43,134 bases of DNA from Candidatus Tanganyikabacteria bacterium. Lineage in GTDB: Bacteria; Cyanobacteriota; Sericytochromatia; S15B-MN24; VGJW01. Position numbers and translations under genes: made by a program. The DNA lies in assembly GCA_016867235.1 (NCBI GenBank), contig VGJY01000012.1, positions 1 through 43,134 of the forward strand, written 5' to 3'. Under the pieces are notes generated by a model. That model had not been told where the DNA came from and made no database searches. It was given only the letters and a program-made list of their open reading frames with translations. This document shows, in pieces, positions 6,099 through 39,434 of the stretch (positions within the stretch are counted from its first letter, which is position 1; each line of letters opens with the position of its first letter).

Positions 6099-7688
6099 CT
6101 ACTTCAAGGGCTTGCCGGCGATCAGCTGGGCTTGCCAGTCGTAGGACCAGGACTTCTCTGGCGTGGTCACGAAGGTCTTGCCCGAGAGGCGCCGGCCGTT
6201 TTCGAGCAGCACGATCTCGCTCTCGACCTTGCTGCCTGCCGGCGCCGGCGTCCGCCACTTGTAGAACTTCTTGCCCGCCTCGCCTTTGATGGGGAAGGCG
6301 ACCAGGGTGTTCTTGCGGAGCGGCGCCGTGCCGACCGTGGGGATGGTGACGCCCTGGATGCGGCCGCGCAGGTTGCGGAGGTGGAAGTACCCGCCCAGGT
6401 CCTTGTCGCGGTCCTTGCCGACCCACACGTAGGTGCCGCCGGCCGTTCGCAGCGATCCGAGAGCGATCCAGTCCCAGGTGTCGAAGGAAGCTTCCTTCCC
6501 GCCCAGTTCGCGCTTGCCCAGGCCGCCCTTGACCCAGGCGTTGCCCAGCTTGTCGCGCTGCGCGCGGACGCCCAGCGAGACGATCTGGTGCGCCGAGAGC
6601 GGCTTGACTTCGCCGGCGTCGGCGACCGCATCCGAATCGGCATCCTGCCAGACCCGGAGCTTGGCCAGCTCGCGGCCGGTCAGCCTGCCGTCGCGATTGG
6701 CGTCGAGGGTGGCGAGGGCCTGGTAGCCGTCCTTCCAGCGCTTGCCCCAGGTCACGTTGCCGAAGAGCTGCCGGCCCGAGGTGATGCGCCCCTTGCCGTC
6801 GGGATCCCAGACCAGCAGGCCGGACTTGGGCCCGACCCATTCCCAGGCCATGTCGGGGCCGGTGCCGTCCAGGTCGAACTGGCGCAGCGCGGTCGAAGCC
6901 ATGCGCCGTCCCGGGAAGAACGCCCAGGGCATGCCGGCCAGGAGGTCGGGCTGCCCGCTGCCCGCCAGATCCACCACGATCGGGCTCACCGTGTAGACCA
7001 GGCCCTTGAGGTCCACCGTGACGCTCTCGCCCGACTTGAGCTTGAGGGTCTGCAGGTTTGTAGTGCCCGAGGTATCGCGGGTGCCCAGGTCGGAGCTCTT
7101 CCAGCCCCAGGCGCCCCAGGTGCCCGCTCCCAGTTGCGAGTAGAGTTGCGAGTACTCGGACGTGCCGACCTTGACCGTGCCGAGGATGGCGTCGGTGCCG
7201 GTCTTGTCGAGGTCGATGAGGATCATCCCGTCTGACCAGCCCCAGCTCCAGTCGTACTGGACCGACGTGTCGGCCGCGGTCTTGAGGGCGGAAGTGGACG
7301 AGTACTGCGCCCGCGCGCCGCCGCCGTAGTTGTCGCCGACGTTGGCGTAGACGTAGTCGACCATGTTGTCCCAGCCCACCTTCGCCAGGGCCTGCTCGAC
7401 GAGGGCGGCGTTGTAGCCGCCCGAGCCGCCCTCGAAGCCGATGCGCTGGTCGGCCATGTTGTCGATCCAGCTCCGGAAGGCGCCGCGGTAGATGGCCACG
7501 ACGTTGGGGTTGTCGGCCACCCAGCGGTAGGTGATCGACCGGGTGGTGGTCTGCGTGCCGAACTTGCCGTCCTTGATCAGCCGCTTGGTGGTCTTGGTCT
7601 GGACCACCGCGTCGTCGACCGCGAAGGCGGGGCTCGCGAGGGAAACCAGGAGGGCGCCGGCCAGGGCGGAATGCATGTAGCGTTTCAT
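6099..7688 (-). CDS. Secreted EF-hand (calcium-binding) protein
   Basis: The product has 529 residues. A signal peptide covers residues 1-23, with likely cleavage after SPAFA. The middle holds Asp-rich loops: FDLDGTGPD at 271-279, DPDGKGRITSG at 295-305, and two canonical 12-residue EF-hand loops at 329-340 (D-A-N-R-D-G-R-L-T-G-R-E) and 349-360 (D-A-D-S-D-A-V-A-D-A-G-E), spaced like a dockerin or calmodulin-type pair. The region before them resembles integrin-like or FG-GAP statements (VDLAGSGQPDLLAG). The C-terminus is rich in beta strands. It is likely exported and calcium-stabilised; the ligand is unknown. It follows the small secreted protein gene (7707-8339) after 18 bases and is probably cotranscribed. 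Confidence 0.75.
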   Translation of the reverse strand: MKRYMHSALAGALLVSLASPAFAVDDAVVQTKTTKRLIKDGKFGTQTTTRSITYRWVADNPNVVAIYRGAFRSWIDNMADQRIGFEGGSGGYNAALVEQALAKVGWDNMVDYVYANVGDNYGGGARAQYSSTSALKTAADTSVQYDWSWGWSDGMILIDLDKTGTDAILGTVKVGTSEYSQLYSQLGAGTWGAWGWKSSDLGTRDTSGTTNLQTLKLKSGESVTVDLKGLVYTVSPIVVDLAGSGQPDLLAGMPWAFFPGRRMASTALRQFDLDGTGPDMAWEWVGPKSGLLVWDPDGKGRITSGRQLFGNVTWGKRWKDGYQALATLDANRDGRLTGRELAKLRVWQDADSDAVADAGEVKPLSAHQIVSLGVRAQRDKLGNAWVKGGLGKRELGGKEASFDTWDWIALGSLRTAGGTYVWVGKDRDKDLGGYFHLRNLRGRIQGVTIPTVGTAPLRKNTLVAFPIKGEAGKKFYKWRTPAPAGSKVESEIVLLENGRRLSGKTFVTTPEKSWSYDWQAQLIAGKPLK

Positions 7689-11321: not shown

Positions 11322-12002
11322 CTAGTTTAACTGGCCGGCAAGCGGCGCGTAGCGTCTGGATTGCCGGAGCACCGACGTGATGTACCCGCGGTTGCGGTAG
11401 TTGCCCCGGCTGATCATCGTGCGGCGGCCGCCGTTGTAGTAGCTGAGCGCTGCGTTGATGTCCCCGTCGTACTCCCGGAGCCGATCCTTCAGGAAGAACG
11501 TGCCAAGCAGCAGGTTGGTCTCCGGATCGGTCAGGTCGTAGGACTTCAGGCCGAGCTTCCGCGCCAGCGGGCGCGCCGTGCTGGGAAGCAGTTGCATCAG
11601 GCCGATCGCGCCCTTGTGCGACACGGCCTTGGGGTTGAAGCGCGACTCGACGTAGACGATACCGGCAATCAGATCGGCGGGCAGATCGTAGCGCTTGGCG
11701 ACCTTGCCGATGGCGTTTGCGTAGGGATACGGCGGCCGCGCAGCGGCGCGGTTTGGGGTGGCCGGCGGCACGAGCCGCGTGTAGGCCGGATTTACTTTCT
11801 CCCGCCAGTCGGCGACGATCGCCCGGTCGGGCATGCTGGCGGGCGTCCAGAGCGCGTCCTGGCGGAGCGCGCTGAGGAATGCCAGCGCCATGGTGGCGGG
11901 CAACAGTACGGCCAGCCGCGCCGCGATCGCTCGCCAGCCGGCCGGCGGGGCGCCTGCGAGGGCCGTGATCGAGGTAGCCGAAACCATCGCCTGTCCTTCC
12001 AA
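11322..12002 (-). CDS. Lytic transglycosylase (SLT domain)
   Basis: The product has up to 226 residues; ATG 11987 is an alternative start five codons later. A hydrophobic segment at about 28-46 is a signal anchor or signal peptide. The SLT domain spans about 95-215, with the catalytic Glu119 in YVESRFNPKAVS, then GAIGLMQLLPSTA, NLLLGTFFLKD and ALSYYNGG, all standard motifs of family 1 lytic transglycosylases. Such enzymes cleave the MurNAc-GlcNAc bond of peptidoglycan and form 1,6-anhydro ends, acting outside the cytoplasmic membrane. The gene stands alone between the UbiA gene and a clear terminator. Confidence 0.9.
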   Translation of the reverse strand: MEGQAMVSATSITALAGAPPAGWRAIAARLAVLLPATMALAFLSALRQDALWTPASMPDRAIVADWREKVNPAYTRLVPPATPNRAAARPPYPYANAIGKVAKRYDLPADLIAGIVYVESRFNPKAVSHKGAIGLMQLLPSTARPLARKLGLKSYDLTDPETNLLLGTFFLKDRLREYDGDINAALSYYNGGRRTMISRGNYRNRGYITSVLRQSRRYAPLAGQLN

Positions 12003-12084: not shown

Positions 12085-13089
12085 TCAGCCTAACAGGGAA
12101 CTAAGGGTTGGTAAAGCCAAGGTCGCGGCCGACGTGGCCATGGCGGCCCCGAAGACCGCCACGGCGGCCACGTACGCCCACCCGGGCGGCGTCGGCCTGC
12201 GGAAGAAGGCTATCTGCAGACCGATCTGCACGACAGCCAGGCCGCATAGCGCGATCACGGCCGCCAGGTCCTGCGGCGCGGCGAGTATCGCGGCGGTCAG
12301 GATGGCCGTATCGATCAGCATGGCGCCGATCAGCAGCCCCATCTCGCGGCCCAGGAGGGCCGACAGCGACCGGATGCCCACCCGGCGTTCGCCCTCGACC
12401 TTGTTGAGGGCGGCCAGGATCAGCAGGCCGACCGCGCCGAACGAGAAGCTGAGGGCCAGGATCCCGGACAGGAAGGTGACGGGGCCGAACATCAGGTTGC
12501 CCGCAACCCACGGGAAAGCGACCGAGAGGACGCCGAAGAACAGCCCGCTCCACCAGGTGTTGCGCCGCAGCGACAGGGGCGGGGCGTTGACCGCGAAGAT
12601 GATCGCGAGCGAGGCGATGGTCATGTAGAACAGGCCGCCGCCCTCGGCGGACCCCACCCCGAGGGTGGCGCTCAAGCGCGCCCCCAGGCCGTGGTCGAGA
12701 AGCTGCGCGAAGAGCAGGATGACCATCCCCATCAGCCCCATCTGCGCGATGACGGTATCCGTGGACAGGCGGCCGGACGGCAGGGGCCTGCCGGGATGGT
12801 TGATCGCGTCGATGTCGCGGTCGAAGAGCGAGTTGACCACCGCGTTCATGCCGGCCAGCATCGGTCCGGCGAGCACCAGGCCGAGCAGCACCCGGGAGAC
12901 GTGGGAGGCGTCGGGCGCAAGCTGGCCGCTGGCCAGGGCGCCGCAGAAGAAGGCCGCCATCGGCAGCAGCCAACCCGGAGGATGGCTCAGCTCGAGGGAG
13001 AGCCGCCAACCCGGAACCGAACGCTCTGAATGAAAACTGACGCGAAGGCGCTCCGACGCCCGCAATGGGGCGGGAACTGCGTGGTGCAT
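12085..13089 (-). CDS. UbiA-family prenyltransferase, ChlG/BchG-like
   Basis: The product has 334 residues with about eight or nine membrane segments. The first motif, NSLFDRDIDAINHPGRPLPS (86-105), gives N86, D90 and D94 and strongly resembles chlorophyll/bacteriochlorophyll synthases. The second motif region reads AALNKVEGERRVGIRSL (226-242), where ChlG-type enzymes have an NDFKS-(I/V)-EGDR block: the leading Asp is replaced by Ala227 and the later Asp by Glu234. UbiA enzymes use both Asp-rich motifs to hold Mg-diphosphate, so the substrate or activity may differ. No pigment gene is nearby. The start ATG 13089 has AGGAAGG upstream, and a plausible promoter lies about 120 bases further up. 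Confidence 0.8.
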   Translation of the reverse strand: MHHAVPAPLRASERLRVSFHSERSVPGWRLSLELSHPPGWLLPMAAFFCGALASGQLAPDASHVSRVLLGLVLAGPMLAGMNAVVNSLFDRDIDAINHPGRPLPSGRLSTDTVIAQMGLMGMVILLFAQLLDHGLGARLSATLGVGSAEGGGLFYMTIASLAIIFAVNAPPLSLRRNTWWSGLFFGVLSVAFPWVAGNLMFGPVTFLSGILALSFSFGAVGLLILAALNKVEGERRVGIRSLSALLGREMGLLIGAMLIDTAILTAAILAAPQDLAAVIALCGLAVVQIGLQIAFFRRPTPPGWAYVAAVAVFGAAMATSAATLALPTLSSLLG

Positions 13090-16177: not shown

Positions 16178-17239
16178 TCAGATGCCGAGGCGCCGCTCCA
16201 GGAGTGAGGCGATCCGCCTCGCGGCTCCGGGTTCGCCGACCCGCGACCGGCCCGCCTCAGCGGCGCGCGCTCGGGCCGCGTCGTCGCTCAGAAGGCGGTG
16301 CACCGTCTCGCCGATGGCCCCGGCGTCGCGGGCCACCAGGTGCAGGGCCTCCCCCAGCAACTGCTGCTGGCGGGCCGCGAAATAGGGCGTGTACTGCGGG
16401 CCCGGGCCGGCGAAGGCGACGATCGGCCGGCCGTGCGCGGCGGCCACCTCGCTTGCCGTCCCGGCGGTGGCCAGCACCAGGCCGGCCGGGGCGAGGGCCT
16501 GGTGCAGGCTCGCGACCGCTGCCCCGTTCGTCTCGGCCAGCGCGCGCAGGTCGGCGCGCCCCGGGGCCAGGGCGACGCGCGTCCTTTCCGGCGCTACTCC
16601 CGCCTGGCGGGCGGCGGCCAGCATCAGCGGCAGGTTCGCGACGGCATCCTCGCGGCTGCCGGGCAGGATCGCCAGGCCGTCGCCGGGCGGCGGCAGCGGT
16701 TCGACCAGATCCGGGATCGCGTTGCCCGGGAACTCGACCCGCAGGCCCAGGCGCCGCAACCGTTCGGCGGTCGGGGCATCCCGGGGCAGGACATGCGTGT
16801 CCCAGCAGCGCAGGGCGGCTACTTCGGCCGCGATGTACGACTCGCCCCAGTCGGCGTAGTAATCGGTCTTGTTGCAGCCCACCAGCACGATCGGCGGCAG
16901 GCCGGCCACGGCCGCGAATGCCGCCGGCAGCACGTCGCCGACGCCCACCACCAGGCGCGGGGCGAGGCCGCGGGCGGCCGCGAGCGCCGACCCGAGGTCG
17001 GCCGCCCACCCGTGGCGCCAGTCGCGCAGGAAGGCCCGGAGGGACCGCTGGCTCCAGCCGCCGCCGGGAAGATCCCGGGCGGGCCCCAGCACCGGGATGC
17101 CGGCCTCCCGGTAGGCGTGGCCGGCGCCCACCAGGGGGAGGCCCGCGCTGGCCGCGGCGGGCAACTCCCGCGCGATGCGGGCGGCGACGGCGTCTTCGCC
17201 GTGGCCGTTGCTGATCAGGAGCAGGGCGACGTCTGACAA
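16178..17239 (-). CDS. Lipid-A-disaccharide synthase-related protein (TIGR03492 type)
   Basis: The product has 353 residues, starting at TTG 17239 as MSDVALLLISNGHGEDAVAA. NGHGED near the N-terminus, VGVGDVLPAAFAA, VGCNKTDYYADWGESY, AILPGSREDAVANLPLML and LVLATAGTASEVAA are shared with the family annotated as lipid-A-disaccharide synthase-related, described mainly from Cyanobacteria and Deinococcota. It has the GT-B fold of LpxB/MurG-like glycosyltransferases; the sugar acceptor is not known. The gene is divergent from glmS, which supplies the precursor of UDP-GlcNAc, so a role in amino-sugar glycolipid synthesis fits the context. Confidence 0.85.
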   Translation of the reverse strand: MSDVALLLISNGHGEDAVAARIARELPAAASAGLPLVGAGHAYREAGIPVLGPARDLPGGGWSQRSLRAFLRDWRHGWAADLGSALAAARGLAPRLVVGVGDVLPAAFAAVAGLPPIVLVGCNKTDYYADWGESYIAAEVAALRCWDTHVLPRDAPTAERLRRLGLRVEFPGNAIPDLVEPLPPPGDGLAILPGSREDAVANLPLMLAAARQAGVAPERTRVALAPGRADLRALAETNGAAVASLHQALAPAGLVLATAGTASEVAAAHGRPIVAFAGPGPQYTPYFAARQQQLLGEALHLVARDAGAIGETVHRLLSDDAARARAAEAGRSRVGEPGAARRIASLLERRLGI

Positions 17240-17282: not shown

Positions 17283-19124
<1,842 letters not shown>

Positions 19125-37045: not shown

Positions 37046-37930
37046 ATGAGCGCGTGGAATCGCTTCTGGTTCGGACCGGCATCGCCGCTGCCGCTCGGGC
37101 TGTTCCGCATCGGTCTGGGGCTGGCGTTTCTGGCCTACCTCTACCAGATCACCGCCCCCTTCGAGGAATTCCTCGGCACCCGCGGCATCGTCGCGCCCGC
37201 CACCATCGAGGCCATCCTGCCGCAACCGCGCCTCAACCTCCTGCCGGCCGGGACGCCCGACGCGATCATGCGCCTGGCGCTCTTCGTCTTCTGGGTGGCG
37301 GCCCTGATGCTCACGATCGGCTATCGCACGCGCCTGGCCACCTTCGCCTGCTTCGCGCTCATGTGCTCGTTCACGCAGCGCAACCCGTTCCTCCTCAACG
37401 GTCCCGAGCAGTTGCTGCGCATCTACTCGTTCTCCTTCCTGCTGGCTCCGGGCAACTTGCCCTTCTCGGTCGATCGCCGCCTGGCCGGGCTGCACTGGCC
37501 TCCCGGGCCCGTGATTCCCCTCGCGCAGCGCCTGATCGCCCTGCAGGTGGCCATCGTGTACCTGGCCGGCGTGCTGTGGAAGACCGGCGGATCGCGCTGG
37601 GTGGACGGCACCGCGGTGTACTACACCGATCAGTTCGAGACCCTCAAGAACCACTGGCTGCCGCTGCCGCTGCCGTCCCTGGAGGTGGTCAATCTCGCGA
37701 CCTATCTCACCATCGCCGTCGAACTGGCGATAGCGCTTTGCGCGTGGTTCCGGCCGACGCGGCCCTGGGTGCTGGCGGGCGGCGTCCTGCTCCATCTGGG
37801 GATCGGCTGGAACATGAACCTCTGGATCTTCAGCTTCGCCATGCTGGCCGGGTACCCGTGCTTCCTGGCGGGTCGCGACGTGATGGCAATGACCCGCTCC
37901 CTCGGCCGCTGGAGGGTTGCTTGGCGGTGA
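37046..37930 (+). CDS. HTTM-domain membrane protein B1 (SdpB-like)
   Basis: The product has 294 residues with about seven or eight membrane segments. It begins FWFGPASPLPLGLFRIGLGL, followed by TIGYRTRLATFACF, CSFTQRNPFLLNGPEQLLRI, PLAQRLIALQVAIVYLAGVL and WVDGTAVYYTDQ, the layout of the HTTM domain shared by vitamin K-dependent gamma-carboxylase and by SdpB of peptide-toxin systems. The protein at 38454 is a paralogue with the same motifs. Catalytic carboxylation cannot be claimed without alignment. Its stop overlaps the start of A2 by four bases (GTGA), so the genes are coupled. Confidence 0.8.
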   Translation: MSAWNRFWFGPASPLPLGLFRIGLGLAFLAYLYQITAPFEEFLGTRGIVAPATIEAILPQPRLNLLPAGTPDAIMRLALFVFWVAALMLTIGYRTRLATFACFALMCSFTQRNPFLLNGPEQLLRIYSFSFLLAPGNLPFSVDRRLAGLHWPPGPVIPLAQRLIALQVAIVYLAGVLWKTGGSRWVDGTAVYYTDQFETLKNHWLPLPLPSLEVVNLATYLTIAVELAIALCAWFRPTRPWVLAGGVLLHLGIGWNMNLWIFSFAMLAGYPCFLAGRDVMAMTRSLGRWRVAWR

Positions 37931-38457
37931 GCGACGGGACCTTCTCCGTCAGGGTGCCGCGTGGCGTCGTAGCCGCCTTCCTGGCCTACCACCTCTTCGG
38001 CGTGGCGGTCCTCTCGCTGCCGGATTCAGCCGTCAAGTACCGCCTGGCGCCATACGCCTGCGCCTACTGCGACTACCTGGGCCTCTGGCAATCGTGGGCG
38101 ATGTACAGCCCGGATCCGCCCCGGGAGAATCTGATCCTGCGTGCCCGCGTCCACCTGGCGGACGGCACCGCGATGCCGTTCGACTTCCCGGAGTGGCGTG
38201 ACGGGCCGTTCCGGTCGTTCTTCTCCCTCGGTTTTCGCAGCCTGCTGACGCTCGCGCCCGCCTATCCCGAGGCCTTGCCCGACATCGCACGCTACGTGGC
38301 CCGGCGGATCCAGGCCGCGAGTCCGGCCGTCAGGGTCGACCTGTTCTGGGAAATCCAGGCCGTGCCGCCACCCGAGATCGGCCTGCGATCCTCGGCCTTG
38401 CCGCCCGCTCGCCATGCGCCCCTCGGGTCGTTCGCTGTGGGCGGGGGCACCCCATGA
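37927..38457 (+). CDS. Small membrane protein A2 of HTTM operon
   Basis: From GTG 37927 the product has 176 residues. A hydrophobic segment at about 12-30 is followed by SLPDSAVKYRL, YLGLWQSWAMYSPDPPRENL, VHLADGTAMPFDFPEW, ALPDIARYVARRI and VPPPEIGLRSS. These match A1 motif for motif. The large part after the membrane segment is probably on the outer face. The start overlaps the B1 stop (GTGA) and its stop overlaps the B2 start (ATGA), giving a tightly coupled operon. No Shine-Dalgarno site is needed if reinitiation occurs. Confidence 0.75.
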   Translation: MSDGTFSVRVPRGVVAAFLAYHLFGVAVLSLPDSAVKYRLAPYACAYCDYLGLWQSWAMYSPDPPRENLILRARVHLADGTAMPFDFPEWRDGPFRSFFSLGFRSLLTLAPAYPEALPDIARYVARRIQAASPAVRVDLFWEIQAVPPPEIGLRSSALPPARHAPLGSFAVGGGTP

Positions 38458-39434
38458 CGCGCTTCTTCTTCGGACCGGCCTCGGGACTGCCGCTGGCACT
38501 GTATCGCATCGCCTTCGGCGTGCTGGGCGTCCTCTACACGCTGCAGCTTGTGCGCTACTTCAAGGACTACTACGGCCACCAGGGCGTCCTGCGGCCCGCG
38601 ACCGTCCTCGCCCTGGGCAGCGCGGGCCATCCGCAGATCTTGCCGGCCTGGCTCCCGGACGGGGCGCTATGGTTGGCCCTCGCGGCGCTCGCCGGGGCCT
38701 CGGCGGCGCTCGCCTGCGGCTATCGCACGCGCATGGCGGCCATCGCGGTCTTCGTGCTGCTTTCGTCCTTCTACTTCCGCAACGTGCTGGTCGCGTGCGG
38801 CGCCGAGCGCATCCTGCGGTTCTGCGCGTTCTGGTTGCTCTTTCTCCCGGCGGATCTTCCGCTGTCGGTCGACCGCTACCTGGCCGTCAGGCGCGGCGAC
38901 CGCGTGCCCACGACGATCGCGCCCTGGCCCCAGCGCATGATCGCCATCCAGATCGCGGTGGTCTACCTGACGACCTTCTTCACCAAGACGCAGGGCGAAA
39001 CCTGGATTTCGGGTACCGCCGTCTACTACGCCCAGCACTACGTGCTGGCCTCCAACAAGGCGACCGCCCTGCCGCTGCTGGATCTCACCATGGTCAACAT
39101 CGCCACGTACGCCACGCTCGCCGCCGAACTGGCGCTGGGGACCCTCGTCTGGTTCCGCGGGACGCGCCTGCCGGTGCTGGCAGGCGGAATCGCGCTGCAC
39201 GCCGGCATCGCCTGGAACCTCGGCCTCTGGTACTTCTCGGCCGTGATGATCGGGTCTTACCTATGCTTCCTGGACCGGGCCGACCTGGCGCGCCTGCGCA
39301 GGCTGGCGCGCCGCGCGCTGCCGCGCTGCCTCGAAAAGCACCACCGCCACGGCGGCGGCGGCGTTGAGGGACTCGGTCCGGCCGGGCATCGGGATGGCGA
39401 TGGCCTCGTCGGCCAGGGCCAGGGCGTCCCGTGA
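38454..39434 (+). CDS. HTTM-domain membrane protein B2 (SdpB-like)
   Basis: The product has 326 residues from ATG 38454. It parallels B1: FFFGPASGLPLALYRIAFGV, ACGYRTRMAAIAVFV, SSFYFRNVLVACGAERILRF, PWPQRMIAIQIAVVYLTTFF and WISGTAVYYAQHY. Residues 1-285 are the HTTM region. The tail (from about 292, HHRHGGGGVEGLGPAGHRDG) has no family resemblance and is antisense to the end of the RNA methyltransferase gene, which it overlaps by 174 bp. The tail may be a read-through into the neighbour after loss of an original stop. It is the last gene of the four-gene operon. Confidence 0.78.
   Translation: MTRFFFGPASGLPLALYRIAFGVLGVLYTLQLVRYFKDYYGHQGVLRPATVLALGSAGHPQILPAWLPDGALWLALAALAGASAALACGYRTRMAAIAVFVLLSSFYFRNVLVACGAERILRFCAFWLLFLPADLPLSVDRYLAVRRGDRVPTTIAPWPQRMIAIQIAVVYLTTFFTKTQGETWISGTAVYYAQHYVLASNKATALPLLDLTMVNIATYATLAAELALGTLVWFRGTRLPVLAGGIALHAGIAWNLGLWYFSAVMIGSYLCFLDRADLARLRRLARRALPRCLEKHHRHGGGGVEGLGPAGHRDGDGLVGQGQGVP

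What the first reader, a model, noticed from the sequence alone, without database searches (positions are those of the whole stretch)
12085..13089. ChlG-like prenyltransferase with altered second Asp motif and no pigment genes
The first motif and the VEGxR-GxxSL block are strongly ChlG/BchG-like, but the residues equivalent to the two Asp of the second motif are Ala227 and Glu234. The neighbours are cell-wall genes. It may be a relic or a relative with a different tetrapyrrole or polar acceptor, of interest for the history of photosynthesis genes in relatives of Cyanobacteria.
Basis: partly seen in the sequence, partly recalled or inferred. Interest (0 to 1): 0.52.

Follow-up and report, generated by a model that had tools for sequence, protein, structure and literature searches.

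The report
Chlorophyll-synthase relative without its active site
Several non-photosynthetic relatives of Cyanobacteria keep, next to a cell-wall enzyme gene, a membrane protein built like chlorophyll synthase whose catalytic residues are largely gone; selection still preserves it, so it probably has a new, non-chlorophyll job.

Summary
In detail: 12085-13089(-) encodes a 334-aa UbiA-fold protein whose closest relatives are chlorophyll/bacteriochlorophyll synthases, with Ala227 and Glu234 in place of the second-motif Asp pair. Syntenic orthologues occur in 7 of 18 genomes of its class (Sericytochromatia), in three families. They form one clade beside ChlG and BchG, apart from UbiA, MenA and heme O synthases. 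All seven lack ChlG residues K39, Y159, Y181, N218, D219 and K221; other metal ligands erode differently in each lineage. Yet one species pair shows dN/dS of about 0.06-0.10. BchL, BchM/ChlM, BchH and type II reaction-centre families are absent from all 18 genomes at cut-off. Six of seven carriers have a specific lytic transglycosylase gene directly downstream; no non-carrier has that orthologue. Best reading: a ChlG-derived pseudo-prenyltransferase kept for a non-catalytic, probably cell-envelope role; an altered but active prenyltransferase is the main rival. It is neither a working chlorophyll synthase nor a decaying relic. Descent from a photosynthetic ancestor versus gene transfer is unresolved. 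The papers searched do not mention it.

The parts
12085..13089 (-). ChlG/BchG-like UbiA-fold membrane protein, 334 aa
12808..12834 (-). first Asp motif, residues 86-94 (NSLFDRDID), N86/D90/D94 kept; the Asp after N is Ser
   Evidence: alignment with 9sas; coordinates computed from the codons
12388..12414 (-). second motif, residues 226-234 (AALNKVEGE) in place of ChlG NDFKSVEGD: N218>A, D219>A, K221>N, D226>E
12553..12588 (-). clade-conserved loop, residues 168-179 (NAPPLSLRRNTW); Lys of ChlG (K167) is Arg in all seven orthologues and Y159 just before it is lost
11322..11987 (-). SLT-type lytic transglycosylase, co-directional neighbour; orthologue next to the ChlG-like gene in 6 of 7 carriers and in none of 11 non-carriers
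17283..19124 (+). glmS (glucosamine-6-phosphate synthase), divergent; flanks the locus in all 6 carrier loci that reach it
16178..17239 (-). TIGR03492 lipid-A-disaccharide-synthase-related protein; homologue between glmS and the ChlG-like gene in 3 of 6 loci

Best explanation
The gene is a member of a Sericytochromatia-specific branch of the chlorophyll-synthase family that has lost its prenyl-transfer active site and has been kept, under purifying selection, as a non-catalytic membrane protein. Shown: homology and fold; loss of D219, K221, N218, K39, Y159 and Y181 in all seven orthologues; lineage-by-lineage erosion of the other ligands; new clade-specific invariant residues; low dN/dS in one pair; conserved linkage to a lytic transglycosylase gene; absence of the chlorophyll pathway genes tested. 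Inferred: loss of the second-motif Asp happened once, in the stem of the group; the protein still sits in the membrane as a UbiA helix bundle and may hold a prenyl-phosphate-like lipid or a partner protein in the old cavity; its role is in the cell envelope, as a scaffold, lipid-binding partner or regulator of the neighbouring transglycosylase. The last step rests on gene order and co-occurrence only.
For: Catalytic and substrate residues named for ChlG in PMC13297055 (passages) were mapped on 7 orthologues and 34 ChlG/BchG (29+5): K39, Y159, Y181, N218, D219, K221 are each lost in 7 of 7 and kept in 34 of 34; D226 is kept in 3 of 7; N89 and D93 in 6 of 7; D97 in 5 of 7. Of 61 columns invariant in the 34, 13 are kept in all seven and 20 are absent from all seven. 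The nine named sites invariant in ChlG/BchG are kept less often (24%) than the other 52 invariant sites (54%; random draw P 0.028). dN/dS for L006/L007: 0.047/0.473 (NG86), 0.039/0.648 (YN00); the neighbouring transglycosylase 0.081/0.461 and 0.070/0.779. Clade 100/97 in the large tree, 100/100 in the smaller. Synteny. Transglycosylase orthologue at 133 bits or more in 6 of 18 genomes, all carriers. No pathway. UbiA fold: mean pLDDT 75.6, Z 22.4 to 6m31.
Against: Heme O synthases are active enzymes (recalled) yet lack the Asp pair at the D219/D226 columns (Ala and Tyr in L001 and E. coli CyoE, alignment; L054 and L057 lack it too), so loss of this pair alone does not prove inactivity. The window protein and its nearest relatives keep N-x3-D-x3-D of the first motif. 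L006/L007 keep D226. Only one pair was close enough for dN/dS. The co-occurrence with the transglycosylase follows kinship, G006 carries the gene without it, and no carrier shows gene fusion or another direct tie.
Confidence: 0.6

Rival explanations
1. An active UbiA-family prenyltransferase with a re-tooled second motif and a new acceptor (another tetrapyrrole, or a polar or cell-wall lipid acceptor), using the first motif as its main metal site.
For: First motif kept in the window protein, L006, L007, L008; heme O synthases show that the canonical second Asp pair is not universal; hemB and a CyoE homologue suggest that heme is made; low dN/dS.
Against: If function is shared by the syntenic orthologues, L010 (D97>P) and L011 (N89>R, D93>E) have also lost first-motif ligands; K39, K221, Y159 and Y181 are lost in all seven without one fixed replacement at most sites (K221 becomes N, R, R, G, T, H, P).
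Confidence: 0.27
2. A decaying relic of photosynthesis without function.
For: Loss of catalytic residues and of the pathway.
Against: Seven full-length open frames in six genera and three families, conserved synteny, strong third-position bias and low dN/dS, lower than that of its neighbour.
Confidence: 0.05
3. A working chlorophyll or bacteriochlorophyll synthase fed by scavenged chlorophyllide.
For: Profile similarity; a bchG reported as functional in a Bathyarchaeota fosmid suggests that lone synthases can exist (title in the reference list of PMC8262859; that paper itself not read).
Against: Below the curated cut-off of all ChlG/BchG models while a real BchG and a real ChlG pass; D219, K221, K39 and both tyrosines lost; no GG reductase over cut-off in any carrier.
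Confidence: 0.03
4. An ordinary UbiA, MenA or heme O synthase that only looks like ChlG.
For: All share the UbiA fold; AU test does not formally reject SER+MenA (p 0.227).
Against: 98/96 and 97/96 support for the ChlG+BchG+SER group in two trees; profile A1 scores ChlG at 1.5e-49 and the next solved UbiA at 3.6e-7; the genome has separate CyoE-like and MenA-like genes.
Confidence: 0.05

Closest known systems
Chlorophyll synthase ChlG (NF005742, TIGR02056; structures 9sas, 9sau)
   Same: Fold, length, first Asp motif, PSG and APP loops, VEGxR-GxxSL block; best profile and sequence match
   Different: N218, D219, K221, K39, Y159, Y181 and Q305 replaced; scores far below cut-off; organism lacks the pathway genes tested
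Bacteriochlorophyll synthase BchG (TIGR01476)
   Same: As above; sister or near-sister in trees
   Different: Same losses; BchG rows keep all of K39, N89, D93, Y159, Y181, N218, D219, K221, D226
Heme O synthase CyoE/CtaB
   Same: UbiA fold, tetrapyrrole substrate (recalled), and no Asp pair at the second-motif columns
   Different: Weak profile match only (17.9 bits), separate branch; the genome has its own CyoE homologue
UBIAD1 (8djk, HMGCR complex)
   Same: UbiA fold (Z 20.7); a precedent, from general knowledge, for a UbiA protein with a regulatory partner role
   Different: No close sequence kinship; UBIAD1 keeps enzyme activity (recalled)

Membership tests
UbiA superfamily (PF01040) | Pfam model over its gathering score | tested here: met
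   72.9 bits against 34.2
UbiA superfamily (PF01040) | UbiA helical fold | tested here: met
   AF2 model pLDDT 75.6, pTM 0.78; 6m31 Z 22.4 over 274 residues
Chlorophyll/bacteriochlorophyll synthase (ChlG/BchG) | Phylogenetic placement with ChlG and BchG | tested here: met
   Grouped 98/96 and 97/96; no Chlorobi, Chloroflexi, heliobacterial or archaeal BchG could be included
Chlorophyll/bacteriochlorophyll synthase (ChlG/BchG) | Score over the curated equivalog/subfamily cut-offs | tested here: not met
   184 of 313, 177 of 212.3, 140 of 436 bits; the five other orthologues scanned also below, while BchG L087 and ChlG L103 pass
Chlorophyll/bacteriochlorophyll synthase (ChlG/BchG) | First Asp motif N89/D93/D97 | tested here: met
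   Met in the window protein (N86, D90, D94); 6, 6 and 5 of 7 orthologues
Chlorophyll/bacteriochlorophyll synthase (ChlG/BchG) | Second motif D219/D226 with K221 | tested here: not met
   A227, E234, N229; D219 and K221 lost in 7 of 7
Chlorophyll/bacteriochlorophyll synthase (ChlG/BchG) | Chlorophyll pathway in the same organism | tested here: not met
   BchL, BchM/ChlM and BchH 0 of 18 genomes over cut-off; Photo_RC 0 of 18
Chlorophyll/bacteriochlorophyll synthase (ChlG/BchG) | Esterifies (bacterio)chlorophyllide | not testable with these tools
   needs an assay
Heme O synthase, MenA, UbiA proper | Branching within those clades | tested here: not met
   Outside them; AU test for SER+MenA p 0.227, so not a formal rejection

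The most novel reading that the evidence does not exclude
The Sericytochromatia protein is a vertically inherited descendant of a chlorophyll synthase present in the common ancestor of Sericytochromatia and Cyanobacteria, and was converted after loss of phototrophy into a non-catalytic membrane partner of a peptidoglycan lytic transglycosylase. It would be a molecular fossil for an ancestrally chlorophyll-making lineage.
Probability: 0.12. Interest if true: 0.85.

Novelty: new variant of a known kind. Interest (0 to 1): 0.52.

Why it matters
Whether the non-photosynthetic relatives of Cyanobacteria ever had photosynthesis is disputed: PMC8047818 lists among its highlights that Sericytochromatia lost it (passage), while PMC8245535 repeats the view that it was never ancestral (passage). 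A conserved, syntenic ChlG-family gene in three families of this class gives that dispute a specific gene to place. It is also a clear test case for how a prenyltransferase can be turned into something else, and for how automatic transfer of the name 'chlorophyll synthase' to non-phototrophs would mislead.

Tried and rejected
Placement of the clade relative to ChlG and BchG: SER+BchG was the best tree of one run (67/0), SER+ChlG p 0.498, ChlG+BchG p 0.547, and the large tree had SER outside both at 81/51. The data do not decide, so neither vertical origin nor transfer is claimed.

Wider BchG sampling: 10 plasmid records had BchG, all Pseudomonadota; 5 of the 10 were used. The phage collection had none and two viral-contig scans gave none. 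The single genome-contig scan gave 5 loci, all of which are orthologues already found.

Relic hypothesis: rejected on dN/dS and synteny. Active chlorophyll synthase: rejected on residues, cut-offs and pathway. Geranylgeranyl reductase TIGR02032: 3 of 18 genomes over cut-off, none a carrier.

glmS loci of seven non-carriers (G001, G002, G003, G013, G014, G015, G016) were read for an empty site: neither the ChlG-like gene nor the transglycosylase is near glmS there, and a clean deletion could not be defined. The GlmS tree left families f1, f2 and f3 unresolved. No sigma-70-like promoter was found near the gene, which says little. 9sas was not among the fold-search rows, whose copy ends in April 2026.

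Errors of mine: one search read minus-strand loci on the wrong strand; one search printed wrong frames for L002 and L010; one search took a wrong ORF for the cyanobacterial loci L012, L013, L014, L016, L026 and L033. These were corrected. Rows dropped: 29 of the cyanobacterial ChlG hits were used (190 of 386 genomes matched there, seven of them carriers); 9 of 16 further UbiA-type proteins were put in the tree; the tree used 13 of 29 cyanobacterial rows. The random-draw test uses nine residues named in the review and leaves out Q305 and I44 (not invariant across ChlG and BchG) and D97.

Full report
What is there. The minus-strand ORF 12085-13089 encodes 334 residues with one Pfam family, UbiA. 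NCBIfam ranks chlorophyll synthase models first by a wide margin (184, 177 and 140 bits; next non-(B)Chl family 49 bits), but all below their cut-offs. The best solved relative is the chlorophyll a synthase 9sas. The AlphaFold2 model (6 sequences, pLDDT 75.6, pTM 0.78) is a UbiA bundle: Z 22.4 to the archaeal DGGGP synthase 6m31 and 20.7 to UBIAD1, with soluble polyprenyl synthases at about 14.

Organism. The window is contig C12 of a 6.1-Mb genome held at 100% completeness and 2.26% contamination. Its phylum search returns cyanobacterial-type ChlG and its orthologues lie in records named Candidatus Tanganyikabacteria, Candidatus Sericytochromatia S15B-MN24 and Cyanobacteria bacterium UBA8530. 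The class is therefore taken to be Sericytochromatia; the genome itself is unnamed.

Distribution. A protein search finds the gene in 7 of 18 genomes of the class, 5 of 9 among the better ones; a profile search adds no further full-length copy. Carriers are four of five genomes of the window's family (the fifth, G007, is 64% complete), both genomes of a second family and one of a third; two genomes of the same order (G002, G003; 95 and 98% complete) lack it.

Synteny. In all six carrier loci that extend to glmS, glmS lies on one side, divergent; an SLT-type transglycosylase lies directly downstream on the same strand in six of seven carriers (window, L035-L039), not in L040. The orthologue of that transglycosylase (133 bits or more) exists in 6 of 18 genomes, always beside the ChlG-like gene; the best match in any of the 11 non-carriers is 74.7 bits. 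A TIGR03492 gene lies between glmS and the ChlG-like gene in three loci. glmS neighbourhoods of seven non-carriers have neither gene. The locus was therefore probably inherited as a unit at least since the ancestor of the three families; relatedness of the genomes means that the co-occurrence is not a set of independent events.

Phylogeny. With 29 cyanobacterial ChlG, 5 plasmid-borne BchG and 20 other UbiA-type proteins, the seven form one clade (100/97) inside a ChlG+BchG+SER group (98/96). A smaller set agrees (100/100 and 97/96). Whether the clade is nearer to ChlG, to BchG, or outside both is undecided. A grouping with MenA is 12 log units worse but not formally rejected (p 0.227).

Active site. 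The review PMC13297055 (passages) assigns roles in Synechocystis ChlG to K39, N89, D93, Y159, Y181, Q218, D219, K221, D226 and Q305. Aligned with the 9sas chain, nine of the ten letters agree with the numbering; position 218 is Asn in that chain. The window protein has H36, N86, D90, V167, S189, A226, A227, N229, E234 and V310. Over the seven orthologues the state at D226 is E, D, D, H, E, E, D; at D219 A, A, A, T, G, T, A; at K221 N, R, R, G, T, H, P; L010 has lost D97 and L011 has lost N89 and changed D93 to E. Q305 is also V or I in the five BchG, so it is no argument. The pattern is what is expected if the second-motif Asp and the lysines were lost once in the stem and the remaining ligands then drifted (inference).

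Constraint. The closest pair, L006 and L007, differs at 132 of 990 sites, 93 of them at third positions; dN/dS is about 0.10 (NG86) or 0.06 (YN00), against 0.17 and 0.09 for the adjacent transglycosylase. Several residues are invariant in the seven and absent from all 34 ChlG/BchG (R175, V190, F215, L228, A244, G251). So the protein is used.

Pathway. No genome of the class passes the cut-offs for BchL (0 of 18), BchM/ChlM (0 of 18) or BchH (0 of 18), and none matches the type II reaction-centre family (0 of 18); the cyanobacterial control genome rings in each of these four searches. Type I reaction centres, AcsF and BchE were not searched.

Reading. A pseudo-prenyltransferase of ChlG descent with an envelope-linked, non-catalytic role explains loss of catalysis, retained fold, retained selection and gene order. 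The weak point is the role itself: it rests on linkage. The main caution is that heme O synthases work without the Asp pair at these columns (their activity is recalled).

Literature. Searches for Sericytochromatia with 'chlorophyll synthase' (0 papers), 'ChlG' (2), 'chlorophyll biosynthesis' (8) and 'vestigial' (0), for Tanganyikabacteria (2) and for ChlG with 'pseudoenzyme' (0) gave no report of this gene; I read matching passages of PMC10156173, PMC10151467, PMC8245535, PMC7368068, PMC5972617, PMC8262859 and PMC8047818. PMC8262859 notes that single chlorophyll genes turn up in many non-phototrophs and cites a bchG in a Bathyarchaeota fosmid, so a lone ChlG homologue is not new in kind; the eroded, syntenic, selected clade is what is new here. 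The library is open-access only.

Noticed in passing
L115, L116, L117, L118, L119, L124, L125: A second unusual UbiA-type family with a motif of the kind RVFDEFKDxxxD and RKIRxPEEE occurs in genomes of the same order, including the window's genome (contig C66).
   Followed up: partly
L120, L122, L127: In another family of the class (f7) a divergent UbiA-type gene lies about 2-3 kb from a geranylgeranyl-reductase-like gene in three genomes (G013, G014, G015), which hints at a prenyl-lipid pathway.
   Followed up: no
window 37046-37930 and 38454-39434: Two HTTM-domain genes lie close together.
   Followed up: no
window 6099-7688: A well-coded 529-aa protein with no Pfam match.
   Followed up: no
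G008:C4:28023-28667, G003:C32:49955-50464, G003:C40:3941-4414: Transglycosylase-like matches with one in-frame TGA each; possibly pseudogenes or sequencing errors.
   Followed up: no
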